In this document: positions 1 to 24,159 of the stretch, in pieces | How positions within the stretch are numbered: the first letter of the stretch is position 1 | Layout of the letters: each line of letters begins with the position of its first letter | Assembly: GCA_913056125.1 (NCBI GenBank) | Contig: CAJXNC010000003.1 | Location: 124,001-188,000 of the forward strand | DNA: 64,000 bases | Source of the DNA: an uncultured Altererythrobacter sp. | Lineage (GTDB): Bacteria > Pseudomonadota > Alphaproteobacteria > Sphingomonadales > Sphingomonadaceae | Direction of reading: 5' to 3' | Program-made: the position numbers and the translations under genes | The notes under the pieces: model-generated | Database searches by the model: none | The model's input: the letters and a program-made list of their open reading frames with translations, nothing else | What the model was told of the DNA's origin: nothing

Positions 1-113
1 TTGAGATTCGGATGACCATCGATCTCATGGTGTTCGGCAGAAGCCGGTGCCGAGCCAAGCGCCATGAGCGCAGCCGCAGCAACAGCCGTGGTGAAAGTCT
101 TAATCCCCCGCAT
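1..113 (-). CDS. Secreted protein, N-terminal fragment (continues beyond the window start)
   Basis: Minus-strand ATG at 113 gives MRGIKTFTTAVAAAALMALGSAPASAEHHEIDGHPNL..., a typical signal peptide; truncated by the window edge. Confidence 0.55.
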   Translation of the reverse strand, partial: MRGIKTFTTAVAAAALMALGSAPASAEHHEIDGHPNL

Positions 114-134
114 AACCTCTCCTGTATGCAAAAA

Positions 135-2024
135 TTAGCGTCCTAAAGAATACACCATAAGATTGCCACTGGCATTTATGGCGACATATTGTTCGCCATC
201 GCTTCCCCGATAGGACATCGGATTGGCGTTGGCATTACCGTTGAGCGTGGTCTCCCATAGCTGCTCACCGGTGTCTGCGTCAAAGGCCCGGAAACGACGA
301 TCATTGGTTGCTCCGACAAAGACCAGACCGCCGGCGGTTACCGTAGGCCCGGCGCTGCCGGAGTTGCCGAGCAACAGGTCGTTCCCGTCCTCATCCTGAT
401 AAACTCCGAGGGGAACCGCCCACATGATTTGGCCGGTATTGGCATTGACGGCGGTCAAACGCGCCCAAGGCGGCTTGTAGCAAGGCGCGGTCGGGCCAAC
501 CGCGCGGCCATTGTCGTCATATTCGCCACTCAGGGGAGCATTGAAAGAGAAGAATGGGCCTTTGCCGTCCACGCTCGCGCGGTCGTAGGCCGGGGCAGAA
601 GTGGCGTCGAAGCTGTAGGGCTGGTCGCCCTCTACTCGTTCGACCCAGCCGACGAGTGAGCCGTCCTGTGTGTTTACGTAGAAAACGCCGGTTTCCGGGT
701 TCGCGGCGGTGCCGCCCCAGTTCACGCCGCCGGTACCGCCGGGGAACTGAATGGTCGATTGCGGCGGCTCGCCCTGGATGTGATACATGAACGGCGTAAA
801 CGGCCCGGCATTGTAGAAGCCACCTGCACGATCCCACATGTCCAGACAGGCCTGCGAATGGGCCGCATTGGTGTCTTCTGCCGTCACGATATCGCCATAG
901 CTCATCGTCATCCGGCTGAGCGGCGGCGTGACCTGCGGAATTGGCTGGGTCGGATGATAATACTCACCCGGAACATCGCCGCGCGGCACGGGCATTTCCT
1001 CCACTGCATGGACCGGTTCACCGGTCTCGGCGTCGAGGATGTAGACATAGCTGGACTTGCCGACATTGGTCAGCGCCATGCGGGTGCCTTCAGGCGTGCT
1101 GACCGGGATCAGCGAACCGGCATAGGACATGTCGATGTCCCACAGGTCGTGATGCACGGTCTGGAAGTGCCATTTGTATTCCCCTGTCTCCAGGTCAACC
1201 GCGACGACGGAATTGCCGTAGACGTTGGAGCCGGGGCGATCCCCGCCAAAATAGTTGTGCGCGGGCCCCGCGATGGGCAGGTAGACCGTCTTGCTGGCAG
1301 CATCGATTGTTGCTGCGAAGCCCCACATATTGGTGCCGCCACGACCGACCGATGAGTTTGCCCCCCAGGTTTCGGAGAACGGTTCGCCCGGATCAGGGGT
1401 TGTATCGAATTCCCACAGCTTCTCGCCCGTGCGGACGTCGAACCCGCGCGGATTGCCTGCGGGACCTTGCGGATTTTCAAGAGAAGCGGCACCGACAACG
1501 GCAACATGGCCGCTGATCGTAGGTGTGCCGCCATAGCCGATGACCATGTCGGCCCTGCCGCCGTCACCGAAACTTCCAACGAGTTCGCCACTGGCCGCAT
1601 CGATGGCCACCAGGAAGGTGCCTTGCGTAACCAGCAGGCGCGGGCCCATATCGCCTTCGCCCGGCCAATAGGCGAGGCCGCGGCCCGAATAGCCGCCAGT
1701 ACCTTCTGCAGCATTGTGCACCCAGAGTTCCTCACCCGTCGCGCCATTAAGCGCGACGATGCGGTTCTGGGCAGTGAAATACATATTGCCGTTCACGACC
1801 AGCGGAACCGCGTTGTTCACGGCGCGCATCTGGTACGACCATGCCTCGCTGAGCGAACCGACATTGCTGCGGTTGATGTCGTCGAGTGGTGAATAGCGGG
1901 TCGCGGCCAGGTCACGATTGATGGTTTGCCAATCGCCTTCTGGAATGGCGTCCTGCGCCAAGACTCCCGTGGCGCATGTGGTTGCCAGCAGCGCTGTCAG
2001 ACAAAGGCTTTTCGCCTTCCGCAT
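135..2024 (-). CDS. PQQ-dependent dehydrogenase (quinoprotein beta-propeller, GDH-like), secreted
   Basis: Start trimmed to MRKAKSLCLTALLATTCATGVLAQ (signal peptide) with a GGAGAAGG RBS; repeated propeller motifs (ALNGATGEELW, AIDAASGELVGSFGDGG, AFDADTGEQLWETTL) and HHDLWDID active-site-like segment. Confidence 0.9.
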   Translation of the reverse strand: MRKAKSLCLTALLATTCATGVLAQDAIPEGDWQTINRDLAATRYSPLDDINRSNVGSLSEAWSYQMRAVNNAVPLVVNGNMYFTAQNRIVALNGATGEELWVHNAAEGTGGYSGRGLAYWPGEGDMGPRLLVTQGTFLVAIDAASGELVGSFGDGGRADMVIGYGGTPTISGHVAVVGAASLENPQGPAGNPRGFDVRTGEKLWEFDTTPDPGEPFSETWGANSSVGRGGTNMWGFAATIDAASKTVYLPIAGPAHNYFGGDRPGSNVYGNSVVAVDLETGEYKWHFQTVHHDLWDIDMSYAGSLIPVSTPEGTRMALTNVGKSSYVYILDAETGEPVHAVEEMPVPRGDVPGEYYHPTQPIPQVTPPLSRMTMSYGDIVTAEDTNAAHSQACLDMWDRAGGFYNAGPFTPFMYHIQGEPPQSTIQFPGGTGGVNWGGTAANPETGVFYVNTQDGSLVGWVERVEGDQPYSFDATSAPAYDRASVDGKGPFFSFNAPLSGEYDDNGRAVGPTAPCYKPPWARLTAVNANTGQIMWAVPLGVYQDEDGNDLLLGNSGSAGPTVTAGGLVFVGATNDRRFRAFDADTGEQLWETTLNGNANANPMSYRGSDGEQYVAINASGNLMVYSLGR

Positions 2025-2350: not shown

Positions 2351-2377
2351 GTAACGCGGCGCCACGCCGCTTGTTAC
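2351..2377. repeat. Imperfect inverted repeat GTAACGCGGC...GCCGCttGTTAC in the divergent intergenic region
   Basis: GTAAC-GCGGC versus GCCGC-TT-GTTAC read directly from sequence, upstream of the 2486 ORF. Confidence 0.4.
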
Positions 2378-2485
2378 GGTAAATAACTCGCACCCGGCCT
2401 GCGATTGGTGGATAGGCCGGGTCGACTGGAAAATCACATGCATCTCGCCATGCGGCAGGTGCCAGATTGGGGGAATTCTTGTCTG

Positions 2486-3034
2486 ATGTTCGACCTAATA
2501 TTCGACTTTCTCTTTAGCATCACAGACTGGCTGAGGACGACCGTACTCCTCGATTTCGCCTTCTGGATCACCGAGACTTCGCTGAGCCTGTTCATGGTGA
2601 CCAACTTCTGGATGGTCCCCATTGCGCAGGTGTTCCACATCCTCGCAATTGGTGCAGCATTCGGCGCCACGCTGATGTTCACCTTGCGCGTACACGGCAA
2701 AGCAGCAACGGACCTGTCACTCGAACAGGTCGCCGGTCGCTACGTTCCGTGGATTTGGTACGGCCTCCTGGTCATCGTCCTTAGTGGGCTGCTCATGATC
2801 ACCGCCGAACCGATTCGAAACATGGTCAACGCCGTGTTCTGGATCAAGATGCTCGTCCTGCTGGTGACCGTCTTCCTTTCGCTTGGCTTCATCAAGTCGG
2901 TGCGGACGAAGGCCGCGGCCAGCGGTGCAGCCTGGGCCGCAAGCTCGGGCGCGAAGACGACTTCGATCCTGCTGATCGTCCTCTGGCTCTTCATCATGCT
3001 GTGCGGTCGCTGGATCGCCTACGTGCCGGTTTAA
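2486..3034 (+). CDS. Small integral membrane protein, DUF6644-like
   Basis: Four hydrophobic segments; likely start MFDLIFDFLFSITDW; segment-by-segment similarity to the next gene (VFHILAIG..., FWIKMLVLLV..., LLIVLWLFIMLCGRWIAYV). Confidence 0.65.
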   Translation: MFDLIFDFLFSITDWLRTTVLLDFAFWITETSLSLFMVTNFWMVPIAQVFHILAIGAAFGATLMFTLRVHGKAATDLSLEQVAGRYVPWIWYGLLVIVLSGLLMITAEPIRNMVNAVFWIKMLVLLVTVFLSLGFIKSVRTKAAASGAAWAASSGAKTTSILLIVLWLFIMLCGRWIAYVPV

Positions 3035-3049
3035 GGGGGAAGAAGAGAA

Positions 3050-3562
3050 ATGATTTATCCTGAACCGACGAATATCTGGGAATCGATCCAGTATTCTCCA
3101 ATGGGCCTGTCCATCGCTGAAAGCCTGTGGGCATTCCCGATGATCGAAACCGTCCATGTGATGGCGCTGGTTACCGTGATCGGTACGATCCTTGTCATGG
3201 ACCTGCGCATGCTGGGCAAGGCTTCGACCAACCAGGCCGTTACCCAGGTATCGGCCGATACGCTGAAATGGACCTGGCTGGGCTTCGTGGTGGCTGCGAT
3301 CACCGGCACGCTGCTGTTCATCAGCAAGGCCAGCAGCTACATGATCAACCCCTACTTCCTGACGAAGATGGGCCTGTTCGTGGTGGTTGGCCTGAACATG
3401 CTCTATTTCCACTTCGTCACGTACAAGACGGTCGATCAGTGGGATAGCTCCGCATCGCCTCCGCAGGCGGTCAAGACTGCGGCGATCATCTCGCTGCTGA
3501 TCTGGATCGTGATCGTGTTCTGTGGCCGTGCAATCGGCTTTACGCTCGGCATCTATTACTGA
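3050..3562 (+). CDS. Small integral membrane protein, DUF6644-like (paralog of preceding gene)
   Basis: ESLWAFPMIETVHVMALVTVIGTILVMDLRMLG motif and C-terminal LIWIVIVFCGRAIGF; RBS-like GGGGGAAGAAGAG upstream. Confidence 0.7.
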   Translation: MIYPEPTNIWESIQYSPMGLSIAESLWAFPMIETVHVMALVTVIGTILVMDLRMLGKASTNQAVTQVSADTLKWTWLGFVVAAITGTLLFISKASSYMINPYFLTKMGLFVVVGLNMLYFHFVTYKTVDQWDSSASPPQAVKTAAIISLLIWIVIVFCGRAIGFTLGIYY

Positions 3563-3584
3563 GCGCGGACACGCCCTGAACAAG

Positions 3585-3614
3585 AAAGGCCGCCCCTCGG
3601 GGCGGCCTTTTTTA
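3585..3614. terminator. Rho-independent terminator, likely bidirectional between convergent genes
   Basis: AAAGGCCGCCCCTCGGGGCGGCCTTTTTT: GC-rich perfect stem plus T tract. Confidence 0.85.
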
Positions 3615-5714
3615 TTCCTCCTCGGGAAGCGCGAAGACGTAGACCGATGACGAGTTGACCGCAGGGACCGGAATCTCCGGCGTGAAGCCGGGAAGGCCGA
3701 GCGAGAGCGGGCTGCCCATGCCGGTGACGACGGCGACATATTGCCGGCCATCGACGGAATAGGTGATCGGTGAAGCATTGGGTACGCCGGTCAGGCCGGT
3801 TCGCCACAGCACGCTGCCATCTTCCTCGTCATAGGCGATGAACTGGCGATCCATGCCACCGGTAAACAGCACCCCTCCGGCAGTTCCCAGCATGCCCATG
3901 TCGAAAGGCGCGCGCTGGCGCGCCTCCCAAACGATTTCTCCGGTCTCCATGTCGATCGCCTGGATGAAGCCGAAATTGCCATCGCTGTCGGGCGGGGCGG
4001 AGTAGAAAACGCTGACACCGCTGGTCAGGAAGCCACCTTCCTGCACCGGACGGAATTCCATGCAGGTGTCGCGCGCATTGACATAGAGGCGACGCGTTTC
4101 CTGGTTGAAGGTGGTCGGGCTCCAGTTTCGTCCGCCGCCTGCGTGCGGGCACATGAAGACGGAAGGCCGGTCGCGGCCGATCGTCTTGGCCGGATCGGCT
4201 GTCTTGCGGCCAGTCACCGGATCGATATCGATGATGAAATCCTGGAAGCCCATGTCGACGGTCGAGATATATTCTCCCGTCGCTGCATCTATCGTGTCGA
4301 ACAGGCCTTCCTTGCCGCCGGTGATGACGACATGACGATCTTCGCCATCGACCTCGACCTCGCCGATCACGCGTTCGAACACCCAGTCGAGGTCGTACTG
4401 GTCGTTGGGCACGTGCTGGAAATACCAGACGAGCTCACCTGTCCGCGGCTCGAAGGCGAGTGTGGAATTGGTGTAGAGCCCGTCATTGTTCTCGCCGGGC
4501 ACCAGGTCGCGAAGCGGGCCGGTGTCGTAGGTCTGCGCCACGCCCCACAGGGCAAGCCCGGTCTCCGCGTCATAGGTTCCGGAGGTCCAGACCGAACCGC
4601 CATGCCGAGCTTCATTGGGTAGGCCGTTCCACGTGTCGCCACCCGGAGATCCCTCCTGCGCGATCGTGTTGAAGGTCCAGAGATGCTCGCCGTTCTCGGC
4701 ATCGAAAGCGACGATTACGCTGCCGCCATCGCGACCGGAGGCGAAGCCAACCATGGCCACGCCTTCAGCCACCAGCGGACCGCCATTCGAACGCAGCTCT
4801 TCAGCGTCGGGCACTTCGACGTCCCATACGGGACGTCCGGTGCGGGCATCGAGTGCCATCATGTGGAGGTCCGACGTGGCGAGTATCAGCATGTCGTCCC
4901 ACAACGCCATGGTCTTCTTGGAAAGCGGTGTGGTGTCCGCCGGCAATTGGCGCTGATAGCGCCATATCGGCCGACCATCGGCGGCGTCGAAGGCGAAGAC
5001 CTCGTCCCCGAAGCCGAAGGTATAGAGCACACCGTCTCGCACGATCGGCTCGTGCATGTTTGGGCCGACAGGCAGGGCCTGGGCCCATGCAATCGTGAGG
5101 TTGCTCACATTGTCGCGATTGATCTGGTCGAGTGGTGAGTAGCCTTGGCCGTTATGGCCGCGCCGCCAGGTCAGCCAGTTCTCGGGCGCCGGGTTCGACA
5201 GCATGTCTTGCGTGACCGGAGTGTAGTTGGCGAAGCGGTCCACGGGTTCGGGCCAATCCGGCATTGGCACCATGGGCGAGATGCCGCCAATGCCGAGCGC
5301 ATTTTGCTCCTCTATCGAAGGGGCAGGGGGCATCATCGTGGCCAGATCTGCCGTGACCGGCAGTTCGAGGGTTCCGCCATTTTCATGGAAGATCAGCGCG
5401 GTGAGAGCGAGGTAATCCTCTTCGGCCAGATTGCCTGTCCCGCCGGGCGGCATGGAGGAGGAGATGTACTCGGTCAATTCACTGACCGGTACATCACCCC
5501 AATTGGCAAGGAAGGTAGGACCCGTCAGCGATTGGGCGAATTGCCCGCCTGCCAGGGTCTCCCCGTGACAGACGGCGCAATTGGCCGCGTAGACCGCCCG
5601 ACCCGTGTCGAGCTGCTGCCCGACGAACATCTCGCTGCCTTGCGCCAGTGCCGAGGCACCTATAGCTCCCGCAAGGCAGGCCGACCCAAGCAGGGCCCCG
5701 CGCAATCTCGACAA
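3612..5714 (-). CDS. PQQ-dependent dehydrogenase with N-terminal cytochrome c domain
   Basis: Signal peptide, then CAVCHGETLAGGQ (CxxCH) and SSSMPPG (possible axial Met), followed by PQQ propeller (NWLTWRRGHNGQGYSPLDQINRDNVSNL..., FAFDAADGRPIWRYQ). Confidence 0.9.
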   Translation of the reverse strand: MSRLRGALLGSACLAGAIGASALAQGSEMFVGQQLDTGRAVYAANCAVCHGETLAGGQFAQSLTGPTFLANWGDVPVSELTEYISSSMPPGGTGNLAEEDYLALTALIFHENGGTLELPVTADLATMMPPAPSIEEQNALGIGGISPMVPMPDWPEPVDRFANYTPVTQDMLSNPAPENWLTWRRGHNGQGYSPLDQINRDNVSNLTIAWAQALPVGPNMHEPIVRDGVLYTFGFGDEVFAFDAADGRPIWRYQRQLPADTTPLSKKTMALWDDMLILATSDLHMMALDARTGRPVWDVEVPDAEELRSNGGPLVAEGVAMVGFASGRDGGSVIVAFDAENGEHLWTFNTIAQEGSPGGDTWNGLPNEARHGGSVWTSGTYDAETGLALWGVAQTYDTGPLRDLVPGENNDGLYTNSTLAFEPRTGELVWYFQHVPNDQYDLDWVFERVIGEVEVDGEDRHVVITGGKEGLFDTIDAATGEYISTVDMGFQDFIIDIDPVTGRKTADPAKTIGRDRPSVFMCPHAGGGRNWSPTTFNQETRRLYVNARDTCMEFRPVQEGGFLTSGVSVFYSAPPDSDGNFGFIQAIDMETGEIVWEARQRAPFDMGMLGTAGGVLFTGGMDRQFIAYDEEDGSVLWRTGLTGVPNASPITYSVDGRQYVAVVTGMGSPLSLGLPGFTPEIPVPAVNSSSVYVFALPEEE

Positions 5715-5737: not shown

Positions 5738-7348
5738 CTACTCTTCGTCGCTGGCAATCCCCAACGGCTCTGCCACGCGGCTTTCGAACATGGCATCGTA
5801 CAGGGCGATCTTGGCTTCGCCCAGCCACGGGCCGACACCAGTATCCGCACCGTCGAGAAGCATGGCTTCGTTCGGGCCGAGCTGGTCGACCGATGGCCAT
5901 TCGGGCAGGCCTTCGCCATTGGGATTGCCGGTGGCGGCAAAGTTCACCCAATATTGCGAGACCATGTCGGCGAACGCTTCTTCGTCCGGATTGCCGCACA
6001 TCAGATCGACAGATGAACCGCCCGGATAGGTGCGCGGGGCACAAAGGTTGCCGAAGACATAGGGAATTTCGCCCGTATGCGCGGCGCCCAGGTCTGCACG
6101 GTCGGGATCGTAGAGCGGATCGTGCTTGAACCAGTAGTGGTAGGCGTTCTGGCCAATCCCGGCTTGGTATTCGGCGAACTGACGGTGCAGCCAGCTCATA
6201 TTGTCGCCGAAGGGCATGGTGCTTGCGGCGGCGGCTTCCTCATCGGTGGTGACCGGGTAGGCGGCACGGCCGAGTTCGACCAGGTCGCCCCAGCGGAAAC
6301 CTTCTCCCTGCTCCCAGCTGGCCAGCGTCGCGGGCGGGCCGAAAGCGCCGGTGAAACTTCCTTCATCCTCGTTCGAACCGGTCAGCACGTCGACCTTGAG
6401 CTGGCGGCCATTGGCGAATGCAACCGAGAGGTCTTCGGGGATGATATAGCCGTCGATAATCATGCCCTGGCCGCGAATATTGGCGAAGACGTCCTGAGCG
6501 TCCATCGCCCGTAGTTCAGCGAGAGTGCCGGCACTAGCGGCCTGCGCTTCGACCCGCTCGCGCGGGGTCATCTGCGCGATCGAGAGGCCCATCCAGTTGC
6601 CCGACTGGCTGATCACGCGGTGCACCAGGCCTTCCGCGGGCGGGGCGCCTGCAAGGCCGCCATTCATGGCAGCGCCGGCGCTTTCGCCGAAGATAGTCAC
6701 GCGGCTGGGATCGCCACCGAAGGCGGCAATGTTGTCCTGTACCCATTGGAGCGCGGCGATGGAATCGCCCAGCGCCTGATTGCCCGAGGCGCCATGCTCG
6801 GAAGCGGCAGTCAGTTCAGGGTGCGCAAAGAAGCCAAGCGAGCCCACACGGTAGTTGAAGGTGACCACAACCGCGCCCTTTTCGGCCAACTGGTTACCCT
6901 GGCTGAAGGGCGAAGAGCCGCCGCCTTCATTGTATGCGCCGCCATAGAGCCAGACCATGACCGGCAGGCTCTCATCGGCGCTTTCGGCGGGTGTCCAGAC
7001 ATTCAGGTAGAGGCAGTCTTCCGAAATTCCCGGGCTGTCGGGCATGTCGGTTGCCGAGTTGGGCGGGAAACGTTCGGGCGAGGGGTTCTGTATGCAGCTA
7101 TCACCCCAGCTCGTCGCTTCGAGCACGCCTTCCCACGATGCGGCCGGCTGCGGCTGTTCCCAGCGCAGATCGCCGACAGGCGGTGCGGCAAAGGGAATGC
7201 CCTTGAACACGGTAACGCCTTCGATGTCGCCGGGTGCACCGGAAACGAGGCCTTGTGCCGTTTCGACCGGGCCTTCCGAAATCGAATTGGCCGAACAACC
7301 GGTGGATGCGGCCAGCAGCAGGCAGGCGGCCATCAAGCGATACTTCAT
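5738..7348 (-). CDS. Type-B carboxylesterase family lipoprotein
   Basis: FGGDPSRVTIFGESAGA nucleophile elbow, EDCLYLNVWTP motif; trimmed start MKYRLMAACLLLAASTGC gives a lipobox. Confidence 0.9.
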   Translation of the reverse strand: MKYRLMAACLLLAASTGCSANSISEGPVETAQGLVSGAPGDIEGVTVFKGIPFAAPPVGDLRWEQPQPAASWEGVLEATSWGDSCIQNPSPERFPPNSATDMPDSPGISEDCLYLNVWTPAESADESLPVMVWLYGGAYNEGGGSSPFSQGNQLAEKGAVVVTFNYRVGSLGFFAHPELTAASEHGASGNQALGDSIAALQWVQDNIAAFGGDPSRVTIFGESAGAAMNGGLAGAPPAEGLVHRVISQSGNWMGLSIAQMTPRERVEAQAASAGTLAELRAMDAQDVFANIRGQGMIIDGYIIPEDLSVAFANGRQLKVDVLTGSNEDEGSFTGAFGPPATLASWEQGEGFRWGDLVELGRAAYPVTTDEEAAAASTMPFGDNMSWLHRQFAEYQAGIGQNAYHYWFKHDPLYDPDRADLGAAHTGEIPYVFGNLCAPRTYPGGSSVDLMCGNPDEEAFADMVSQYWVNFAATGNPNGEGLPEWPSVDQLGPNEAMLLDGADTGVGPWLGEAKIALYDAMFESRVAEPLGIASDEE

Positions 7349-7367
7349 GTCTGGAAATCCCCTCTCT

Positions 7368-8426
7368 CTATTGGTCGTTGCCGCGCGCCTGTTCCCTCTG
7401 CGCACGCGACGAAGTTATGTATCCACGGATCTGCACATTGCCTTCGTGACAGGCATATTCGAAAAGCTCGTAATCCTCGTCGCGCTGCCAATCGAGGCGC
7501 GCGGTCCAGGGACCCGTGAGAATCTCCGGATCCTCGTAATCCACTTCGTAGGTGATGGTGTCGGGACCAGTCATGGTGAAGCGTTCGACCATGTGGGCCT
7601 GCTCGCTCTGCGGCACGTCATTGCGCGGCGGCGAACCCCAAGTGCCGACATTGTTGGGTGAACCCAGACCGTTGAAATTGGTGGTTTCGACAACCAGCGT
7701 ATTGCCGTCTTCCCAATGGCCGCGGCTCTGGCCGAGCCAGAAGCTGTTGCCATGTGGAGCGGAATAATCCTCGCCCAGCGGGATAAGGCGCACTTCGTGG
7801 ACCATTTCCATCTGGATGGCGACCATGCCCGGTGCCTGGAAGATGCGGATCCCGTTATTGTAGTTGAACGGGAACATACTGGCGGGGAGGCCGCGCGTGA
7901 TGCAGCGGTCCCAGGTGTCGAAATCGAGCGGTGTGTCGTAGGTCTGCCCGGCGATATAGGAACTGCGCTTGGTCGCAGCGAGCCGCTGGCCTTCCTCGGT
8001 CAGTGCGGGAAGCTGGCCATCGGCAGGGGCAATCAGGAAGGAGGTGCGACGGTTGGCATCGCCGGGTTCGACCCAGTGACCCATGCCGATCGTTTCTTCC
8101 TCGATTTCGGTAGCGTAGTTCTGCCCGCGCGCTGCCAGCATGGCGCTGCGCTCGGCATATTCCTCCTCATTGAGGAAATAGCGGTTCCCCTGCTCGGCAG
8201 GCCGCTGGAGAGGGGTGAAATTGAGATGGTCGATCGGCCAGGTGCCGCGCAGGTCCGGATCACCCCACTCGGTGGTAGCGGGCTGGTAATCGCGCGGAAC
8301 GTCGGGGACCGTGACCAGGTCCGTTTCCTGCGCCGTTGCAGGAGCGAAAATGGCGAGGGCGCAACCCGCCAGGCCCGCCGGCAATGCCGCGGACCAAGCA
8401 AGTCGCACCCTCCACCCTTGTGTCAC
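7368..8426 (-). CDS. Secreted ~350-aa protein of unnamed family, paralog 1 of a four-gene tandem array
   Basis: Shares WGDPDLRGTWP, HWVE, RRTS..ADGQLPA, WDRC(I/V)xRG(L/F)PAS(M)(F/Y)PF.YNNG, VVETTN, EYACHEGNVQ with three neighbours; signal-like N-terminus; GTG start likely. Confidence 0.85.
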   Translation of the reverse strand: MTQGWRVRLAWSAALPAGLAGCALAIFAPATAQETDLVTVPDVPRDYQPATTEWGDPDLRGTWPIDHLNFTPLQRPAEQGNRYFLNEEEYAERSAMLAARGQNYATEIEEETIGMGHWVEPGDANRRTSFLIAPADGQLPALTEEGQRLAATKRSSYIAGQTYDTPLDFDTWDRCITRGLPASMFPFNYNNGIRIFQAPGMVAIQMEMVHEVRLIPLGEDYSAPHGNSFWLGQSRGHWEDGNTLVVETTNFNGLGSPNNVGTWGSPPRNDVPQSEQAHMVERFTMTGPDTITYEVDYEDPEILTGPWTARLDWQRDEDYELFEYACHEGNVQIRGYITSSRAQREQARGNDQ

Positions 8427-13760: not shown

Positions 13761-13904
13761 TTCCCAATTCTCGCATGGCGACAGGCTGCCCCCATCGCAA
13801 TCGCGCGGGAACCTAGCCGCATTGGCCATGTCTCAACAAGGCCCAATACAGGCCCGAATTTGACTTAATCCGGTTTTTTTGTCGCCAATTGTATCATTGG
13901 CCAA

Positions 13905-15232: not shown

Positions 15233-15236
15233 GCGC

Positions 15237-15794: not shown

Positions 15795-15992
15795 GTTATG
15801 CGCCTCTCCGTTCGCGTTGGCTTTGACCACCCTTACCAAAGGTGTGGGGCAAAGCATAGTTGACAATGTCCGAAAATTGCTCTTGGGGGAAAACCACGTA
15901 AATCGGCGGTAAATCTTCGCTTAGATATACCGTTCGTTGACAAGGGCCGATATTCGGAACCTCGGAACAGAGTTTGAAAGGGTAAGTGGAAC

Positions 15993-16538
15993 ATGGCGAA
16001 GAACAGGGATTCCTCTGGCAATCGGACAAAGGCACCAATGGCAGCACTTGCTGTCGCCATCCTGTCAGTTCCCGTTGCCGGTGCGTTGGCCATGCCGAGC
16101 GACGAGCCGGTCGTGGAACAACCGGCCATGGAAGAGCCGGCCATGGAGTCGGTTGTTGAAGATCAGGCGACTGAAGATCAGGCGACTGAAGAACAAGCGA
16201 CTGAAGATCAGGCGACTGAAGAACAAGCGACTGAAGATCAGGCGACTGAAGAGCAAGTGACAGAAGAGCAGGCGGCAACCGCCAGCCTGTCCGACGAACA
16301 GATGGAAGAAGCCCGTACGATCTTCGCCAATTGGTCCTGCGGCGCCTGCCACGTGATGGGCGATGCCAATGGCACGGGCCACATCGGTCCTTCGCTTGAC
16401 GGCAACAATGCCATGGACGAGGCATTCATTATCAGCCGCGTGACCAATGGCCAGGGCGCAATGCCGGGCTTTGGCGGCCAGCTGACCGATGAAGAGATTG
16501 CATTGCTCGCTACCTACATCATGGAGGCGAAGCGCTAA
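15993..16538 (+). CDS. Secreted monoheme cytochrome c with repeat linker
   Basis: Signal-like N-terminus, (A/V)TE(D/E)Q repeats, then FANWSCGACHVMGDANGTGHIGPSLDG cytochrome c domain and a C-terminal GQGAMPGFGG Met-loop. Confidence 0.85.
   Translation: MAKNRDSSGNRTKAPMAALAVAILSVPVAGALAMPSDEPVVEQPAMEEPAMESVVEDQATEDQATEEQATEDQATEEQATEDQATEEQVTEEQAATASLSDEQMEEARTIFANWSCGACHVMGDANGTGHIGPSLDGNNAMDEAFIISRVTNGQGAMPGFGGQLTDEEIALLATYIMEAKR
16152..16271 (+). repeat. In-frame 15-bp tandem repeat (8 units) encoding VVEDQ/ATEDQ/ATEEQ/VTEEQ
   Basis: Unit gcgactgaagatcag / gcgactgaagaacaa alternates; eight pentapeptides counted from residue 54 to 93 of the cytochrome. Confidence 0.9.
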
Positions 16539-16595: not shown

Positions 16596-17570
16596 TCAGT
16601 CCACAGCGCTGGCAGTCTGTGGCCCGCGCCCTACCTGGGCGAAGTAGTTGGTTACCCCGTCGGGATCGTTGAGCCAGACGGTGATCAGTCCGAACCCGCC
16701 AAGCACGTTGAGCGGGGTTTCCACTGCGATATCGCGATGTTCGCCGCGCGCCGCAGCGAGCGGGGCGTCCGACACGACATATTGGATGCCGGCGCTGCCA
16801 TTATCGGCATTGCTGCCCATCGCTTCATACAGCATCACGATGGTTTCGTTGAACTGGTAGGGATAGAGCGTGGTGCCCAACACAGTTGCTTCCACCGGCT
16901 CGAGCTCCTCGAGGCCGACGAAATCACGGTAGAAAGCGCGGCTTTGTTCGAGATCGGAGACGCCAATGCCAATGCCCACGCCGTCATCGGCATTGTCTTG
17001 GGCGCCGGGGGCGATGAGAAGAACAATGTCGAAGCCGCCTGGATCCTTGACCAGCGCCTGCTTGAGGCCGTCGCCCCTCGAAACGAATTCAGGTTCAGCG
17101 AAGCCCGCATCGGCGAAGCGCTGCTTCACGACATCCTCGTCGGGATAGCGCAGGAGGAAGAAGCGGATACCCGTGCCGCCCGCATAGCCGCCATCTAGAT
17201 TGTAGAGACGATCGCCCTGTTGGCCGGCCGACAGCTTGATCTGCATCGATCCTACACCGGTCAGGATCATCTGCTGCGTCGAGGTCAACTGGATCGGGTT
17301 GAGCGAGTCCAGTGCCAGCGCGTTGACGTAGAAATTGACCATGTCCTCGGTCGCTTCGCGCGGGAATCGGCGGAACACGTTCATGCCTCCGCCGGTGAAG
17401 ATGTCGGCATTGGATGCGTTGAGCTGGGCTTCGGTCAGCTCGCCCGGTTCATAGGCAATGTCCTGCGATGTATCCATCAGCGCGCCTTCGGGCGTGCGGA
17501 CTTCCTGGGCCTGAGTGGAACTTGCCATGAGGGCCGTACCGGCGGCCAGCGCGGTCAGAAGCTTCATCAT
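16596..17570 (-). CDS. VOC/glyoxalase-fold protein with predicted signal peptide
   Basis: MMKLLTALAAGTALMASSTQAQ signal; GVGIGIGVSDLEQSRAFYRDFVGLEEL typical VOC half-module; AAGGAGAG RBS. Confidence 0.8.
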   Translation of the reverse strand: MMKLLTALAAGTALMASSTQAQEVRTPEGALMDTSQDIAYEPGELTEAQLNASNADIFTGGGMNVFRRFPREATEDMVNFYVNALALDSLNPIQLTSTQQMILTGVGSMQIKLSAGQQGDRLYNLDGGYAGGTGIRFFLLRYPDEDVVKQRFADAGFAEPEFVSRGDGLKQALVKDPGGFDIVLLIAPGAQDNADDGVGIGIGVSDLEQSRAFYRDFVGLEELEPVEATVLGTTLYPYQFNETIVMLYEAMGSNADNGSAGIQYVVSDAPLAAARGEHRDIAVETPLNVLGGFGLITVWLNDPDGVTNYFAQVGRGPQTASAVD

Positions 17571-17593
17571 CACTCTCCTTAATCGTCCGGGCC

Positions 17594-19555
17594 TCAATCG
17601 TCCGGAAGGGCCCAGACGTAGACGCCTTCATTGTTTGCCGGGCCGCCACCGCCTTCGCGCATCACCAGGCCGTAAGCGGTAGCCCCGGTCGCGACCACGG
17701 CAATATACTGCTTTCCGTCGCTTCCGCGATAGCTCATCGGAATCGTGTTGGCCGTATATTCCATCTGCTCTTCCCACACGACTTCGCCGGTGTCGGAATC
17801 GAAAGCGCGGAAAATGCCGTCATTGGTCGCGCCGATGAAGACGAGACCCCCGGCTGTGGCCATCGCGCCGCCTGCCGAGTTATTGGCGCCGGTATCGCGC
17901 TTTCCTTCTTCCAGCTGCGGTGTGGTGCCGAGATTGACCTTCCAGGCGATCTCGCCCGTATTGCCGTCGACGGCGATCATGTGGCCCCAGGGCGGACGCA
18001 GGCAGGACATGTTGATGCTTCGCCCGTCCTCCGTTTCATAGGGAGCAAGGAAGCCCGAATAGGCGCCGGGGCCGGTCAGGCTGCCGCGGTCATAGGGTTG
18101 TGTCGAGCCGTCGGTACCATTGCCGTAATTGCCATCCGGATCGCGCGCTTCGATCCAGCCGATCGACCCACCTTCGGTGATGTTGATGAAGATGTAGCCG
18201 CTGGTGGGATCCGCGGCACTGCCGCCCCAGACCGAACCGCCATTATGCGGCATGTTGATCGATGCGCGCGGCTCGTCGCCTTCCTCATGCAGGAAGAAGG
18301 GCGTGAAGGGGCCCGAGTTGAAGAAATAACCGCCATAGGAATCGAGCAGCGCCTGGCACGCATCGACATGCTGCTGGCTGGTATCTTCCGCAGTGACCAG
18401 AAGGTCTGGGCTCCACCACATGCGCTGCAGCGGCTCGGGCTTGACCGGAATCGGTTGGGTCGGGCTGTACCATTCGCCCGGCACATCGCCGCGCGCCACG
18501 AGCATCTCGTTCACACCGTGGATGGGCTCGCCTGTTTCGCGGTTGAGAATGTACATCAGTCCGTTCTTGCCGGTCAGTGCCAGCGAGGGGACGGATTGGC
18601 CATCCACATCGAGATCGACAAGTACGGGCGGGGCGGGAAGGTCCCAGTCCCACAATTCGTGGTGGATCGCCTGGAAGTGCCACTTGCGCTCGCCAGTCTC
18701 GATATCGACCGCGACCAATGAGTTGGCGAAGAGATTGTCGCCCGGGCGGCCACCGCCATAATAGTTGGGGCCGGGGCTGCCGAGGGTGAAATACAGCGTA
18801 TTCGTGTCGGGATCGGCGGTGGTGTACCAGATCCACATATTGGCGCCGGGACGGTCGCGCCAGCTATCGTTGAGCCAGGTGTCGTTGCCGAATTCGCCTT
18901 CGTGCGGAATGGTGTTGAAGCGCCATTTGGCTGCGCCCGACACAGCATCAAAGGCGCGCATGTCGCCATCGCCTTCCGGTCCGGCCCTGTCCATTTCCGG
19001 CGTCCAGGCGCCGATCACCAGCGTGTCGCGGAAGATGCTCGGCGGGTAGGAATAGCGGGCACCGTCCCAGGTCACCTCGCCATTGTCGCCAAAGCTGCGA
19101 TCGACTTCGCCGGTCGCGGCATCAAGGGCGACAATGGAATTGCCTGGATTGTAGTAGAGGCGAGCGCCATGCGACGCATCGCCAGGCCAATAGGTGACCG
19201 CGCGGCGTGCCGTGCCGTCCTCGATCTCGTGGCGCCAGATTTCGCGTCCCGTGCTACCGTCGAGCGCGACGACGGCATCGCCCGTGGGCAGGTACATGAT
19301 CCCGTCGATCACCACCGGCACCGTGCCTGCCATCGAGCTGCCGCCGCCATTGGGCCTGATGCGGAACATCCAGGCCTGTTCGAGCTGGTCGACATTGCCG
19401 CGATTGATATCGGTCATGGGCGCATAGCGATCGCCTTGATGATTGCGCGCATAAAGCGGCCAGTCGCCGGCATCCGGGCTGGTCAGCACGTCCTGTGCCA
19501 TGAGTGGTGTGGCGAGCATGCTGGCTGCAAGTGCCCAGGAGATTGCCTTACGCAT
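17594..19555 (-). CDS. PQQ-dependent dehydrogenase (quinoprotein, GDH-like)
   Basis: Signal MRKAISWALAASMLATPLMAQ; DWPLYARNHQGDRYAPMTDINRGNVDQLEQAW, HHELWDWDLPAPP, FRAFDSDTGEVVWEEQM. Confidence 0.9.
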   Translation of the reverse strand: MRKAISWALAASMLATPLMAQDVLTSPDAGDWPLYARNHQGDRYAPMTDINRGNVDQLEQAWMFRIRPNGGGSSMAGTVPVVIDGIMYLPTGDAVVALDGSTGREIWRHEIEDGTARRAVTYWPGDASHGARLYYNPGNSIVALDAATGEVDRSFGDNGEVTWDGARYSYPPSIFRDTLVIGAWTPEMDRAGPEGDGDMRAFDAVSGAAKWRFNTIPHEGEFGNDTWLNDSWRDRPGANMWIWYTTADPDTNTLYFTLGSPGPNYYGGGRPGDNLFANSLVAVDIETGERKWHFQAIHHELWDWDLPAPPVLVDLDVDGQSVPSLALTGKNGLMYILNRETGEPIHGVNEMLVARGDVPGEWYSPTQPIPVKPEPLQRMWWSPDLLVTAEDTSQQHVDACQALLDSYGGYFFNSGPFTPFFLHEEGDEPRASINMPHNGGSVWGGSAADPTSGYIFINITEGGSIGWIEARDPDGNYGNGTDGSTQPYDRGSLTGPGAYSGFLAPYETEDGRSINMSCLRPPWGHMIAVDGNTGEIAWKVNLGTTPQLEEGKRDTGANNSAGGAMATAGGLVFIGATNDGIFRAFDSDTGEVVWEEQMEYTANTIPMSYRGSDGKQYIAVVATGATAYGLVMREGGGGPANNEGVYVWALPDD

Positions 19556-19633: not shown

Positions 19634-20728
19634 TCAGAACCCCTTCTCCTCCAGCCAGGAATGGATCAGGGCTGCTACCTCGTCGCTATTGGTCTCAAGC
19701 TGGAGGGCATGGCCATTGCCGTGAATGCCGTGCTCCTCCAGCCGCATGTGATCGACCGTGACACCGGCCTGGCGCAGGAAATGGACCATGGCGTGGTTAT
19801 CTGCCGCCATCCAGCTTGCCTCTGCCGTGACAACGACGACGGGCATGTCGCACAGGTTGGGCAATCGGCGAGCCGGATCCGCCTGCACCTTGTAGGCCAC
19901 GAGGCCATCGCCTGGTGAAGGCATGTCCTGGCTAGCGAGAGTCTCGCCTTCACCCAGCGGCGGATCGTAAGTCAGCGGCGCATGGGTGACGCCGAAGGGC
20001 AGGGGACCGCTGATTGCCTCGAATGGCGGGCCGAGCGGTTCGGCAGCGACAATGGCCTTCACAAGCTCCGGTCGCGCATCGGCAAGGAGCCAACCCGGCG
20101 GCCCACCGGCCGAATGGGACAAGATGATGGCGGGTCCGATCCGGTCGAGCAGTTCGGCGCCCGCGCGTTGGGCGTCTGTCTGGGCAGCCGCGTGGTCGGC
20201 AAGTGTCGGGCCGGTCCCGGCAAGGAAGGACAGGAAGGACGGATCGTCCATAGTGCCCGTGCCCGGCCATTTGTCGTGCAGCCGCGCCTGCGGATAATTG
20301 TCCTCGAAATCCTGCGGCCGGGTGAAGAGCCGCTCGAGGAAGATCGTCGGTCCCGGCCTGCCCATCTCGCCCTGGAACTCGGGATTGAAAGGGCTGCGAC
20401 CGTGTTGCGGTCGGTCGACGACATAGACGGCCCAGCCTTGCCGCACGAACCAGTGCACCCAGCCTTCGCGGCCATCGGGCGTGCCGAGGAAATCGGTGCC
20501 CTGTCCTCCGCCGCCATGGATCATGACGATCGGCAGGTCGTGCGTCAGTTTGCGCGGGACCCAGTATTCGACATATTGCTGACCACGCATGGCCTTGCCG
20601 GCCACTGGGTGATCCACCAGTTCGCCGCCGGTCCAGAAGAAGCCTTGTGCAGCCAGTTCGAGCGGATTCTCGCTGCCAGCTTCATGCAGATCCTGTGGCC
20701 GGTAGGACTTCGACGGCTCTTGGCTCAA
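19634..20728 (-). CDS. Alpha/beta hydrolase (esterase-like)
   Basis: IVMIHGGGGQGTDF oxyanion loop, AIILSHSAGGPPGW nucleophile elbow, HGIHGNGHALQ C-terminal His. Start inferred as TTG (LSQEPSKSYRP) overlapping the TGA of the upstream monooxygenase; the longer 534-aa ORF reads out of frame through that gene. Confidence 0.8.
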   Translation of the reverse strand: MSQEPSKSYRPQDLHEAGSENPLELAAQGFFWTGGELVDHPVAGKAMRGQQYVEYWVPRKLTHDLPIVMIHGGGGQGTDFLGTPDGREGWVHWFVRQGWAVYVVDRPQHGRSPFNPEFQGEMGRPGPTIFLERLFTRPQDFEDNYPQARLHDKWPGTGTMDDPSFLSFLAGTGPTLADHAAAQTDAQRAGAELLDRIGPAIILSHSAGGPPGWLLADARPELVKAIVAAEPLGPPFEAISGPLPFGVTHAPLTYDPPLGEGETLASQDMPSPGDGLVAYKVQADPARRLPNLCDMPVVVVTAEASWMAADNHAMVHFLRQAGVTVDHMRLEEHGIHGNGHALQLETNSDEVAALIHSWLEEKGF

Positions 20729-21978
20729 TGGATCTGGCCCTTGCGGTCCTTGAAGTTGATCGCGACCCGGTCCGAAGGATCGGCGTCGGCCCAGCGTGAT
20801 CCCTCGCGCAGCACATCGCCGATCACCTTGTAGGCGAAGAGCATCAGCAGCGCGCCGCTTTCCGGATCGGTATTGAGCGCCTCGATACTGGCGAGGTCCT
20901 TCTTGCGCTGCTCCATGTCCTGTTCCTGCAGCATGCGCTTGTTCTCGGTCGCCGCCGGGGTGACGACTTCCCAGAAGACCCGCCGCCGCTCGTCGCTGAA
21001 ACGGTCGAAGATTTCCTCGTCCTCCTCGCCGCGCAGCACGGCGCCGAGGATGTCGGCCAGCACGATGCCGGTCCATACGCCCGAGGTGAGGCCAAGCCCT
21101 CCGCAGGGATTGGTCGCATGGGCGGCATCGCCCGCCAGCAGCACGCGACCCTTGTGCAGCGTTTCGGCGGCGCGCTGGTGCAGCATGTAGGGGCTGGAGG
21201 AGACCAGCTCGTAATCCTTGCGGCCCTGCATGAACCATTCATAGCGTTGGTGGATGCGGTCTTCGTAAGTCTCCTCCGGCAGCGAGGAATCCTCCATATA
21301 TGTGCAGCGCCACAGGCCGTCGCGGTCGAGCTGGGCGATGACCGCCATATTGACCGGGTCGCACACGAAATTGGCCTGTTCGTAGCCGAGTTCCTGGAAG
21401 GGGAATTTGACATTGGTGGCGACGAAACGCTCGGGCCAGGTGTGGCCTTCGAACTCGATCCCGGCGAGCTTGCGCACCGTGCTGCGCGCGCCGTCGCAGC
21501 CGACAAGCCACTTGGCTTCATAGGTCTGCTCGCCCTCCTCCGAAGAGGTCATCACGACAATACGGTCGTCATACTCCTCATAGCCATGCACCTCGTGTCC
21601 GAAGAGCACTTCGACGCCGAGTTTCCTGGCATGTTCCATCGCCACGCGGGCGACATCGTGCTGCCCGGCATGGAGCTGGTAGTCATAGGGGATGCCCTCG
21701 ATCGGCTCGGTCGTGACGACCGAATGATGGTCGAACTCGGGAATATGCGTGCCGAAGTCGCGGTTCCTGAAGCCGATCTCGTTGAGCTCGTCGAGAATGC
21801 CCAATTCCTCGAGGATGATCAGCGTCGAGGGGAAGTAGACCGCCGCGCGCGGCGAATTGATGATCTGCTCTTCCTTGTCGAGCACGCGCACGCTGGCACC
21901 CGTCTGGGCCAGCGCAAGCGCGGTCAGCATGCCCACCGGGCCGGCGCCGACAATCAGGACATCGGTTGGATCGCTCAT
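20725..21978 (-). CDS. FAD-dependent monooxygenase, aromatic-ring hydroxylase class (FAD_binding_3-like)
   Basis: VLIVGAGPVGMLTALALAQTGASVRVLDKE Rossmann GxGxxG, GCDGARSTVR (DG motif), GRVLLAGDAAHATNPCGGLGLTSG (GD motif). Confidence 0.9.
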   Translation of the reverse strand: MSDPTDVLIVGAGPVGMLTALALAQTGASVRVLDKEEQIINSPRAAVYFPSTLIILEELGILDELNEIGFRNRDFGTHIPEFDHHSVVTTEPIEGIPYDYQLHAGQHDVARVAMEHARKLGVEVLFGHEVHGYEEYDDRIVVMTSSEEGEQTYEAKWLVGCDGARSTVRKLAGIEFEGHTWPERFVATNVKFPFQELGYEQANFVCDPVNMAVIAQLDRDGLWRCTYMEDSSLPEETYEDRIHQRYEWFMQGRKDYELVSSSPYMLHQRAAETLHKGRVLLAGDAAHATNPCGGLGLTSGVWTGIVLADILGAVLRGEEDEEIFDRFSDERRRVFWEVVTPAATENKRMLQEQDMEQRKKDLASIEALNTDPESGALLMLFAYKVIGDVLREGSRWADADPSDRVAINFKDRKGQIH

Positions 21979-24092
21979 CAATTCTCTTCCTCTTGGCGGC
22001 GTGCCGCTTCGGTCAGGACATAGGCGCGGACGGCCTCCGATTGTTCGGCGTTGATCCAGGGGGCGAAGCTGATCATGCCGTTCTGAGCGAGGATGCCGTC
22101 CATCACCACGGCGTTCCATGCGGCGGCGTCCGTGGCCACGGTGGAGCGCATCAGGTCCGGATTGACCGGGCCGTTATGGCAGATGCTGCAAAAGGCGAAG
22201 AATTGCGCCTGGCCCTCTGCGATCTGCTCGGGAGCGAAGCTCTCCTCGCTCGCGACATAGGGCCGCATTTCCAGCGGCGGCAGAGGTTCAATTATGGCGT
22301 CCCCGCCCAGTTTGAATGCCAGCAGCTGGCCATTGGGCGGCGGGCGGCGCATCCAGTCGGTCTGCGAGGCCATGCCCATCGATCCGCCATAGCCCGCCAT
22401 CACGGCGACATATTGTTCGCCATCCACGCGGTAGGTGATCGGCCCCGCCATGATCCCGCGTTCGCCCTGGAAGGTCCAAAGTTCTTCGCCATTGCGGGCA
22501 TCATAAGCGTGGAAGCTGCCATCGGGCAGGCCCTGGAAGACGAGGTTTCCGGCACTTGCCAGCGTGCCACCATTCCAAGGCCAGTCGCGGCGCACTTCCC
22601 AGACCACGCGCTGATTGACCGGGTCCCATGCCTCGAGCTTGCCGTAGGTGATGGAGGTTAGATAGGCGCGGCGTGCCTCTGGCGTTGCCCCGGGCACCGA
22701 TCCTTCGGGCGGGGCAAGGAAGGACACACCTGTGTTCCAGCGGCCAATATTTCGGGTGAAATCGGCATCGTCGGCATAGGCGTTGGGCACTTCCATCACC
22801 GGGATGTAAACGAGGCCGGTGACAGGCGAATAGCTCATCGGCTGCCAGGCATGCGCGCCGATCCCCATCGGGGTGATGAGGTAGGGCTCGTCGGCAAAGC
22901 GCGCTTCGGGAATCTCGACGGGGCGGCCGGTTTCGAGGTCGATCCGTTCTGCCCAGTTCTGTTCGGCAAAGGGCTCTGCGCTGATCAGCTTCCCGTCCTC
23001 GCGATCGATCACGTAGAAGAAGCCGTTCTTGGGCGCCTGCATCGCCACCTTGCGCGGCTCTCCATCAATTTCGAGTGTCGCCAGCGTGATCTGCTGGGTG
23101 GCGGTGAAGTCCCAGGTTTCCCCGGGATTGACCTGATAATGCCACTTGTAGGCACCGGTGTCGGGATCGAGCGCGAGGATCGATGACAGGAACAGATTGT
23201 CGCCCTTGCCATCGCTGCGCACGCGGTGGTTCCACGGGCTGCCATTGCCTACGCCGATAAGGAGCTGGTCGAATTCGGCATCGTAGACGATCGAATCCCA
23301 CACGGTGCCGCCGCCGCCCAGTTCCCAGTAATCGCCAAACCATGTTTCGCCGGCGAATTGTTCGAAGGCAGCGTCCGATGCGGCGCCATCGGGACCGTCC
23401 GCCGGATTGCCGGGCACGGTGTAGAACCGCCAGACAAGCTCGCCATTGTCGGCATCATAGGCCGAGATGTAGCCGCGCACGCCCATCTCGGCGCCCGAAT
23501 TGCCGATCAGCACCTTGCCGCGCACCACGCGCGGGGCGCCGGTAATGGTATAGGGCTGCTGCTGGTCGACGGTGACAACGTCCCACAATTCGTCGCCGGT
23601 TTCGGCATCGAGCGCGATCAGGCGGCCGTCGATCGTGCCGAAGAAGACCTTGCCTTCCCAAACCGCCACACCGCGATTGACCGTATCGCAGCAGGCATGC
23701 GCGCCTTTGGCGCCATCGACTACCGTGTCGTAGCGCCAGATTTCCTCGCCCGTAGCCGCATTGACCGCGCGAACCTTGGACCAGGCGGTGGAGAAGTACA
23801 TCACGCCATCGACGACGATAGGCGTGGCTTCCTGTCCGCGATTGGTGTCGAGGTCGATTGCGAAGGCGAGGCCGAGATGCTCGACATTGTCGGTATTGAT
23901 ATCGGAGAGCGGGCTGAACCGGTCCTCGGCATAGGTACGGCCATGGGACAGCCAATTGTCCGGATCGTTCTCGGCGTCGAGCAGGCGTTCCTCGTCGATG
24001 GCGCCGAAAGTCGTCGGGCTGTCCGAACAGGCGGCGAGGGCCAGTGAGCCAATTGTAGCGACGAATAATGCAATGCGGGCCATGCCCATGCT
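21978..24092 (-). CDS. PQQ-dependent alcohol dehydrogenase-type quinohemoprotein with C-terminal cytochrome c domain
   Basis: Lipobox IGSLALAAC; vicinal Cys pair GAHACCDTVNRG; GETWDFTATQ; C-terminal FFAFCSICHNGPVNPDL heme motif. Confidence 0.92.
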   Translation of the reverse strand, partial: SMGMARIALFVATIGSLALAACSDSPTTFGAIDEERLLDAENDPDNWLSHGRTYAEDRFSPLSDINTDNVEHLGLAFAIDLDTNRGQEATPIVVDGVMYFSTAWSKVRAVNAATGEEIWRYDTVVDGAKGAHACCDTVNRGVAVWEGKVFFGTIDGRLIALDAETGDELWDVVTVDQQQPYTITGAPRVVRGKVLIGNSGAEMGVRGYISAYDADNGELVWRFYTVPGNPADGPDGAASDAAFEQFAGETWFGDYWELGGGGTVWDSIVYDAEFDQLLIGVGNGSPWNHRVRSDGKGDNLFLSSILALDPDTGAYKWHYQVNPGETWDFTATQQITLATLEIDGEPRKVAMQAPKNGFFYVIDREDGKLISAEPFAEQNWAERIDLETGRPVEIPEARFADEPYLITPMGIGAHAWQPMSYSPVTGLVYIPVMEVPNAYADDADFTRNIGRWNTGVSFLAPPEGSVPGATPEARRAYLTSITYGKLEAWDPVNQRVVWEVRRDWPWNGGTLASAGNLVFQGLPDGSFHAYDARNGEELWTFQGERGIMAGPITYRVDGEQYVAVMAGYGGSMGMASQTDWMRRPPPNGQLLAFKLGGDAIIEPLPPLEMRPYVASEESFAPEQIAEGQAQFFAFCSICHNGPVNPDLMRSTVATDAAAWNAVVMDGILAQNGMISFAPWINAEQSEAVRAYVLTEAARRQEEEN

Positions 24093-24159
24093 GCGTTCCC
24101 CTCCCGGCAAGATCATGCACCCTTTGCGGGCGTCATTATCACGAACGTTAGATTAAGGC

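What the first reader, a model, noticed from the sequence alone, without database searches (positions are those of the whole stretch)
1..24116. 24-kb periplasmic PQQ-oxidoreductase island with unknown substrate
Five distinct PQQ propeller dehydrogenases sit in one stretch with small cytochromes c, an esterase, a secreted VOC protein, an FAD hydroxylase, an alpha/beta hydrolase, small membrane proteins and a four-gene family I cannot name. PQQ dehydrogenases are usually found singly or in pairs, so this density suggests a dedicated periplasmic oxidation pathway for a complex or multi-step alcohol/aldehyde substrate. No PQQ biosynthesis genes, TonB receptor or regulator were seen in the window.
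Basis: partly seen in the sequence, partly recalled or inferred. Interest (0 to 1): 0.75.

Follow-up and report, generated by a model that had tools for sequence, protein, structure and literature searches.

The report
Periplasmic quinoprotein island for lignin-derived aromatics
A marine-type bacterium carries a conserved block of about 25 genes, including five PQQ (quinone-cofactor) oxidation enzymes, that comes and goes together with the enzymes that split the commonest bond in lignin; it is therefore most likely a cell-envelope oxidation stage for breaking down lignin-derived compounds, with several protein families nobody has studied.

Summary
The island is real and larger than reported. 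Five distinct PQQ propellers lie in 24 kb; the whole 3.0-Mb genome has 14. The block has the same gene order in about 30 Erythrobacteraceae/sphingomonad loci and is a present/absent cassette: genus-mates without it have an empty site between an EL222-type photoreceptor gene and GLYK/DHDH/NUDIX. The window cuts it: DUF6152, another esterase and the EL222-type gene lie just left; LigE- and ApbA-type genes belong on the right. A reduced core (two PQQ enzymes, carboxylesterase, YACHEGN family, DUF6152) recurs in Gammaproteobacteria and partly in Acidobacteria.

The best substrate clue is phylogenetic. The island carries a LigE beta-etherase (55% identical). An unlinked LigF beta-etherase occurs in 22 of 24 island genomes and 0 of 16 island-less genus-mates; strong LigB ring-cleavage genes in 24/24 versus 2/16. 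On a marker tree LigF follows the island in 4 of 5 independent contrasts, never against it. No genus member sampled encodes PqqC, so PQQ is probably scavenged. Best explanation: the periplasmic oxidation arm of lignin-derived (beta-aryl ether/phenylpropanoid) catabolism; the exact substrate and the YACHEGN/DUF6152 functions are unproven. EL222 control of the island was tested and not supported.

The parts
1..131 (-). 3' end of YACd, distant relative of the four-gene family (whole gene -738..131)
   Evidence: conserved next to DUF6152 in relatives
135..2024 (-). PQQ1: secreted PQQ propeller, glucose-DH-like without membrane domain, D-I-D motif (ORF to 2210; signal-peptide start at 2024)
   Evidence: PF01011 2.9e-155
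2405..3034 (+). DUF6644 membrane protein a (divergent)
   Evidence: conserved
3050..3562 (+). DUF6644 membrane protein b
3612..5714 (-). PQQ2: N-terminal cytochrome c + alcohol-dehydrogenase-type PQQ propeller, D-L-D motif
5738..7405 (-). Secreted type-B carboxylesterase; best solved relative fumonisin B1 esterase
7368..8426 (-). YACHEGN family copy 1 (secreted, no Pfam/NCBIfam)
8435..9547 (-). YACHEGN family copy 2
9602..10723 (-). YACHEGN family copy 3
10720..11787 (-). YACHEGN family copy 4; AF2 model pTM 0.77, C-terminal calycin-like barrel
11784..13829 (-). PQQ3: PQQ propeller, D-Y-D motif; profile used for the cross-phylum search
13905..14543 (-). Single-span anchored periplasmic protein (ANCHOR), paired with HupE
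14540..15280 (-). HupE/UreJ-type membrane protein
   Evidence: PF13795 1.6e-49
15237..15866 (-). Cytochrome c'-like lipoprotein candidate (CRACH)
   Evidence: PF01322 weak, E 0.009
15993..16538 (+). Small cytochrome c (divergent)
   Evidence: PF13442 1.7e-14
16596..17597 (-). Secreted glyoxalase/VOC-fold protein
17594..19555 (-). PQQ4: PQQ propeller, D-W-D motif
19634..20725 (-). Alpha/beta hydrolase (ORF to 21238; true start inferred; optional in relatives)
20725..21981 (-). FAD_binding_3 aromatic hydroxylase (optional in relatives)
21978..24116 (-). PQQ5: quinohaemoprotein alcohol DH with C-terminal cytochrome c, Ca-type motif (D-F-T)
   Evidence: TIGR03075 646.7 bits, over cut-off
24160..25038 (-). 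Glycerate-kinase-like protein (also kept at some island-less loci)
25035..26003 (-). D-2-hydroxyacid dehydrogenase (also kept at some island-less loci)
   Evidence: PF02826
26007..26840 (-). LigE-type beta-etherase glutathione S-transferase (ORF to 26894)
   Evidence: 4yam LigE 6.8e-101, 150/275 identical
26957..27877 (-). ApbA/PanE-type reductase, absent from the island-less loci examined

Best explanation
A present/absent periplasmic oxidation module of lignin-derived aromatic (beta-aryl ether and phenylpropanoid) catabolism. Proposed steps: secreted esterases release ester-bound groups; PQQ dehydrogenases, loaded with scavenged PQQ and with Ca or probably lanthanide, oxidise benzylic or side-chain alcohols and aldehydes in the periplasm and pass electrons to fused or small cytochromes c; oxidised dimers enter the cytoplasm, where LigE (island) and LigF (elsewhere) cut the beta-ether with glutathione and LigB-type dioxygenases open the rings. 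Shown: gene content, synteny, present/absent cassette, co-occurrence with LigE, LigF and LigB, missing PqqC. Inferred: substrate, reaction order, PQQ uptake, and the roles of YACHEGN proteins (perhaps ligand-binding barrels) and DUF6152.
For: Same gene order across the family and an empty site in relatives. Island GST is LigE level: 340.7 bits, 55%, comparable to Saro_2405 versus LigE, 344 bits/61% (PMC5892560). Unlinked LigF (4xt0, 5.6e-100), alone among housekeeping genes, has the same genus profile as LigE: 22/24 versus 0/16, Fisher 2e-9. A C-alpha-dehydrogenase-like SDR is 23/24 versus 0/16; strong LigB 24/24 versus 2/16. Independent contrasts for LigF: 4 with, 0 against, 1 tie; the EL222 control shows no trend. 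The reduced island of G036 lacks LigE, PQQ2, PQQ4 and PQQ5, and that genome lacks LigF. Lignostilbene dioxygenase (6ojr, 2.6e-187) and LigAB lie 6-9 kb left of the window. Other PQQ loci of the genome neighbour tannase, VanA-type Rieske, GMC and FAD_binding_4 flavoproteins.
Against: The cross-phylum core lacks LigE in the loci read, so the core reaction cannot depend on beta-ether cleavage. G036 keeps YACHEGN/PQQ1/PQQ3 without etherases. G041 has LigE/LigF-like genes without the island. Known sphingomonad pathways use cytoplasmic NAD enzymes for these oxidations (PMC5892560, PMC11323797). Dihydroxyacetone-kinase-like and aldolase-like genes next to some cores hint at sugars or polyols. Only five robust independent contrasts; sign test p 0.125.
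Confidence: 0.5

Rival explanations
1. A periplasmic oxidation module for sugars or polyols (glucose-dehydrogenase-like), giving energy through incomplete oxidation and C3 products handled by glycerate kinase, hydroxyacid dehydrogenase or dihydroxyacetone kinase.
For: PQQ1, 3 and 4 are nearest the glucose/quinate family TIGR03074 by domain; GLYK/DHDH adjoin; genes read by eye as DhaK/DhaL and a class II aldolase adjoin cores in L080, L088 and L089.
Against: All TIGR03074 hits are far below its cut-off; GLYK/DHDH persist at some island-less loci; co-occurrence is with etherase and ring-cleavage genes.
Confidence: 0.2
2. A catabolic or detoxifying route for another ester-bearing natural product (fumonisin-like, terpenoid, algal polyphenol) that merely shares hosts with aromatic degraders.
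For: Two esterases; EST_B best solved relative is fumonisin B1 esterase; FAD hydroxylase and second hydrolase are optional cargo.
Against: The EST_B match is family-level only; the LigE gene lies in the cassette and LigF follows it across losses.
Confidence: 0.17
3. A light-regulated island under the adjacent EL222-type LOV-HTH photoreceptor.
For: An EL222-type protein (138/195 identical) adjoins the island wherever both lie on one contig.
Against: Adjacency follows from a fixed insertion site: EL222 is present in 15 of 16 island-less genus-mates (in the six read, at the empty site), and islands in G020, G037 and G048 lack it. Its consensus RGNCYWWRGNCY is not enriched, and the only recurring site lies 30-60 bp 3' of the EL222 gene, where a terminator is likely.
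Confidence: 0.05
4. Empty quinoproteins: structural propellers that do not use PQQ in a host that does not make it.
For: No PqqC in the genus; partial TIGR04528 'acido-empty-quinoprotein' hits; Asn of the TGN motif changed in PQQ1/3/4.
Against: Catalytic Asp, the Lys position and the stacking Trp are conserved in all five, and cytochrome c domains are fused to two; TIGR04528 hits are below cut-off.
Confidence: 0.06

Closest known systems
Sphingomonad beta-etherase pathway (LigD/L/N/O, LigE/F/P, LigG or NaGSTNu; PMC5892560)
   Same: LigE- and LigF-level orthologues and a C-alpha-dehydrogenase-like SDR are in the genome and track the island
   Different: LigE sits in a periplasmic quinoprotein island, apart from LigF; five PQQ enzymes, YACHEGN and DUF6152 proteins are not part of the described pathway; the SDR is only 35-38% identical to a LigD probe
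Pseudomonas ped cluster (PedE/PedH PQQ alcohol dehydrogenases; PMC12997753, PMC5487730)
   Same: Periplasmic PQQ dehydrogenases with cytochromes for alcohols and aldehydes; Ca- and Ln-type motifs side by side
   Different: Five propellers of several types, esterases, YACHEGN/DUF6152 proteins; host lacks PqqC
beta-5 and beta-1 dimer pathways (PcfL/LsdD, LdpA/LsdA) of Novosphingobium (PMC11323797)
   Same: Lignostilbene dioxygenase and LigAB adjacent to the island in this strain
   Different: There the side-chain oxidation shown is by NAD enzymes; a PQQ candidate (Saro_2870) was assayed but is not among the dehydrogenases reported active
EL222 (Erythrobacter litoralis LOV-HTH)
   Same: 71% identical, photoactive-Cys motif GRNCRFLAG kept
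   Different: Neighbour only; control of the island not supported

Membership tests
PQQ-dependent alcohol dehydrogenase, TIGR03075 | Score above curated cut-off (480 bits) | tested here: met
   PQQ5 646.7 bits; PQQ2 at 341.8 bits does not reach it
Membrane glucose/quinate dehydrogenase, TIGR03074 | Score above cut-off and N-terminal membrane domain | tested here: not met
   PQQ1/3/4 score 342-371 against 832.65 and match only model positions from about 143 on
PQQ enzymes in general | PF01011 propeller with catalytic Asp and partner residues | tested here: met
   PF01011 in all five; catalytic Asp, Lys position and Trp conserved
Lanthanide-type PQQ enzymes | D-x-D at the catalytic Asp (PMC11996626) | tested here: met
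   PQQ1 DID, PQQ2 DLD, PQQ3 DYD, PQQ4 DWD; PQQ5 DFT does not; metal not measured
PQQ producers | PqqC/PqqB in the genome | tested here: not met
   No PqqC in 49 genus/family genomes; positive control 16/98 Alphaproteobacteria over cut-off; PqqB none over cut-off
LigE/LigP beta-etherase | Full-length orthology-level similarity to LigE | tested here: met
   340.7 bits, 150/275 identical; next solved GST 46.5 bits
LigE/LigP beta-etherase | Glutathione-dependent cleavage of MPHPV | not testable with these tools
   needs enzyme assay
LigF beta-etherase | Orthology-level similarity to LigF | tested here: met
   4xt0 337.1 bits, E 5.6e-100; next 68.2 bits
LigD/L/N/O C-alpha-dehydrogenase | Nearest solved relative is a Lig C-alpha-dehydrogenase | tested here: inconclusive
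   best 3ioy 3.5e-56, then 4ya6 1.5e-54 and 4y98 1.9e-46
EL222 regulon | Conserved RGNCYWWRGNCY sites at island promoters | tested here: not met
   fewer sites than shuffles give; none conserved at island promoters

The most novel reading that the evidence does not exclude
The core shared by Proteobacteria and, in part, Acidobacteria (PQQ3, PQQ1, carboxylesterase, YACHEGN family, YACd, DUF6152) is a previously undescribed extracytoplasmic catabolic machine: YACHEGN proteins are a new calycin-like enzyme or substrate-binding family, and DUF6152, whose predicted mature protein starts with an invariant His-His and has an invariant NPH, is a copper-site OB-fold partner; together they pre-oxidise lignin-derived oligomers outside the cytoplasm.
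Probability: 0.18. Interest if true: 0.8.

Novelty: new variant of a known kind. Interest (0 to 1): 0.58.

Why it matters
It would put a periplasmic, PQQ-dependent (and probably lanthanide-dependent) stage in front of the cytoplasmic beta-etherase route, in bacteria that appear unable to make PQQ and so would depend on neighbours for the cofactor. It gives a testable setting for two unstudied secreted families (YACHEGN and DUF6152, the latter with no paper in the library), and clean natural presence/absence pairs of close relatives for comparing growth and lignin-dimer use.

Tried and rejected
EL222 control of the island: linkage explained by a fixed site; motif not enriched. PQQ synthesis elsewhere in the genome: PqqC absent with a working positive control, PqqB hits all below cut-off. 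YACHEGN identification by Pfam, NCBIfam and a PDB profile: nothing significant; fold search gives only a partial barrel match (E 4e-4, TM by query 0.2). DUF6152 fold search: OB-fold neighbours only at E about 2e-3. Plasmid collection: only distant YACHEGN and DUF6152 homologues, adjacent to each other in Novosphingobium, Sphingobium and Croceibacterium, no island. My first FAD-hydroxylase query was out of frame; redone in frame. tRNA-His inside PQQ5 judged a false positive. Literature searches gave no description of such an island.
Full report
CHECK. The window is C3:124001-188000 of a 3.01-Mb genome; the scan with PQQ3 places it among Erythrobacteraceae, near Aurantiacibacter and allied genera. 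The five propellers are 25-44% identical to one another. Three (PQQ1, 3, 4) resemble the soluble domain of the glucose/quinate family; PQQ2 has an N-terminal and PQQ5 a C-terminal cytochrome c. The genome holds 14 PQQ-type loci, so five in 24 kb is far above chance.

EXTENT. The window cuts the island. To the left come YACd, DUF6152, an esterase, then an EL222-type LOV-HTH regulator, a FadL-type porin, LigA/LigB subunits and a carotenoid-oxygenase family protein whose best solved relative is lignostilbene dioxygenase I. To the right lie a glycerate-kinase-like protein, a D-hydroxyacid dehydrogenase, a GST and an ApbA-type reductase. The GST's only close relative in the PDB is LigE beta-etherase: 340.7 bits, 150 of 275 identical, next solved GST 46.5 bits.

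CONSERVATION. The YACHEGN family is in 25 of 81 sampled relatives. Where regions were read, the gene order is the same: esterase, DUF6152, YACd, PQQ1, DUF6644 pair, PQQ2, carboxylesterase, YACHEGN copies, PQQ3, ANCHOR, HupE, cytochromes, VOC, PQQ4, optional hydrolase and FAD hydroxylase, PQQ5, then GLYK, DHDH, GST, ApbA, with a few losses. In six genus-mates without it, EL222 lies directly beside GLYK or NUDIX: an empty site lacking also GST and ApbA. DUF6152 is 88-99% identical within the genus, well above its neighbours.

BEYOND THE FAMILY. Of 67 loci found with a PQQ3 profile, most Erythrobacteraceae loci carry the island. A reduced core of PQQ3, carboxylesterase, YACHEGN, PQQ1, YACd and DUF6152 occurs in Gammaproteobacteria or unassigned Proteobacteria (L088, L092) and a Rhodospirillales MAG (L089); other Gammaproteobacteria and Acidobacteria (L086, L104, L105, L107, L109) have parts of it. 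Most of these are metagenome bins, so taxonomic labels should be read with care. About nine loci are PQQ3 paralogues without the island. In a Caulobacteraceae MAG, DUF6644 pairs flank a CopC protein (Pfam) and a CopD-like one (by eye).

SUBSTRATE CLUE. LigE is in the cassette, so its co-occurrence (22/24 island genomes, 0/16 others) is partly linkage. LigF is not: it lies on another contig among housekeeping genes, matches LigF at 5.6e-100, and is in exactly the same genus members as LigE (Fisher 2e-9). The two exceptions are a 69%-complete genome (G005) and G036, whose shortened island lacks PQQ2, PQQ4, PQQ5 and GST. A C-alpha-dehydrogenase-like SDR is in 23/24 versus 0/16, but its nearest solved relative is an unnamed SDR, so I do not call it LigD. 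Strong LigB hits (better than about 1e-70) are in 24/24 versus 2/16. These counts ignore relatedness. On ETF-QO trees the island changed state at least five times; in the five independent contrasts LigF goes with the island in four and against it in none, while EL222 shows no trend. Five contrasts cannot reach significance, so this is consistent support, not proof.

COFACTOR. PqqC is absent from all 49 genus and family genomes sampled, while 16 of 98 Alphaproteobacteria exceed the cut-off in the same search; PqqB has only sub-threshold hits. The host must take up PQQ, or the propellers are empty. Catalytic residues are kept, so I favour uptake. Four of five carry the D-x-D motif used as a lanthanide indicator in PMC11996626; metal use is inferred.

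UNKNOWN FAMILIES. YACHEGN copy 4 folds with pTM 0.77; its C-terminal part resembles fatty-acid/retinoid-binding barrels weakly (E 4e-4, TM by query 0.2). DUF6152 models as an OB-fold (pTM 0.65) with invariant His-His at the predicted signal cleavage and an invariant NPH. A copper site and a ligand-binding role are hypotheses only.

REGULATION. The regulator next door is 71% identical to EL222. Its adjacency is explained by the fixed insertion site, and its published consensus (PMC10521638) is not enriched: 21 sites in 15 regions where shuffles give about 53, and the one recurring site is just downstream of the EL222 gene. I reject control by EL222 on present evidence.

VERDICT. The kind is known (PQQ dehydrogenase clusters, beta-etherase pathway); their joining in one conserved island with two unstudied families is, as far as the searches reached, undescribed.

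Noticed in passing
L010:15294-15914 (+), i.e. window -4706..-4086: EL222-type LOV-HTH photoreceptor gene (71% identical, Cys motif kept) at the island insertion site; kept in most genus-mates with or without the island.
   Followed up: yes
L010:18770-19195 (-) and relatives (alignment A5): DUF6152 is 88-99% identical in the genus members read while neighbours are about 60-85%; invariant His-His at the predicted mature N-terminus and NPH suggest a metal site.
   Followed up: partly
L119:13607-17251: In a Caulobacteraceae MAG two DUF6644 pairs flank a CopC protein and a CopD-like membrane protein, hinting at a copper link.
   Followed up: partly
L080:1849-5393, L088:12336-15529, L089:2040-5421: Genes that read as dihydroxyacetone kinase subunits and a class II aldolase next to the PQQ/YACHEGN core in distant bacteria; in L080 and L089 also a HAD phosphatase.
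   Followed up: no
L011 (G000 C1:318001-338000): Two FAD_binding_4 flavoproteins and a cytochrome c beside a YACHEGN and a PQQ4 paralogue: a second, smaller oxidation cluster.
   Followed up: partly
L016 (G000 C6:187001-207000): C-alpha-dehydrogenase-like SDR near two amidohydrolases, a PQQ dehydrogenase and an aldehyde-dehydrogenase-like gene; likely another aromatic cluster.
   Followed up: partly
window 23407-23493: tRNA-His predicted inside the PQQ5 coding sequence; probably a false positive.
   Followed up: no
window 31854-32199: Alphaproteobacterial permuted tmRNA gene.
   Followed up: no
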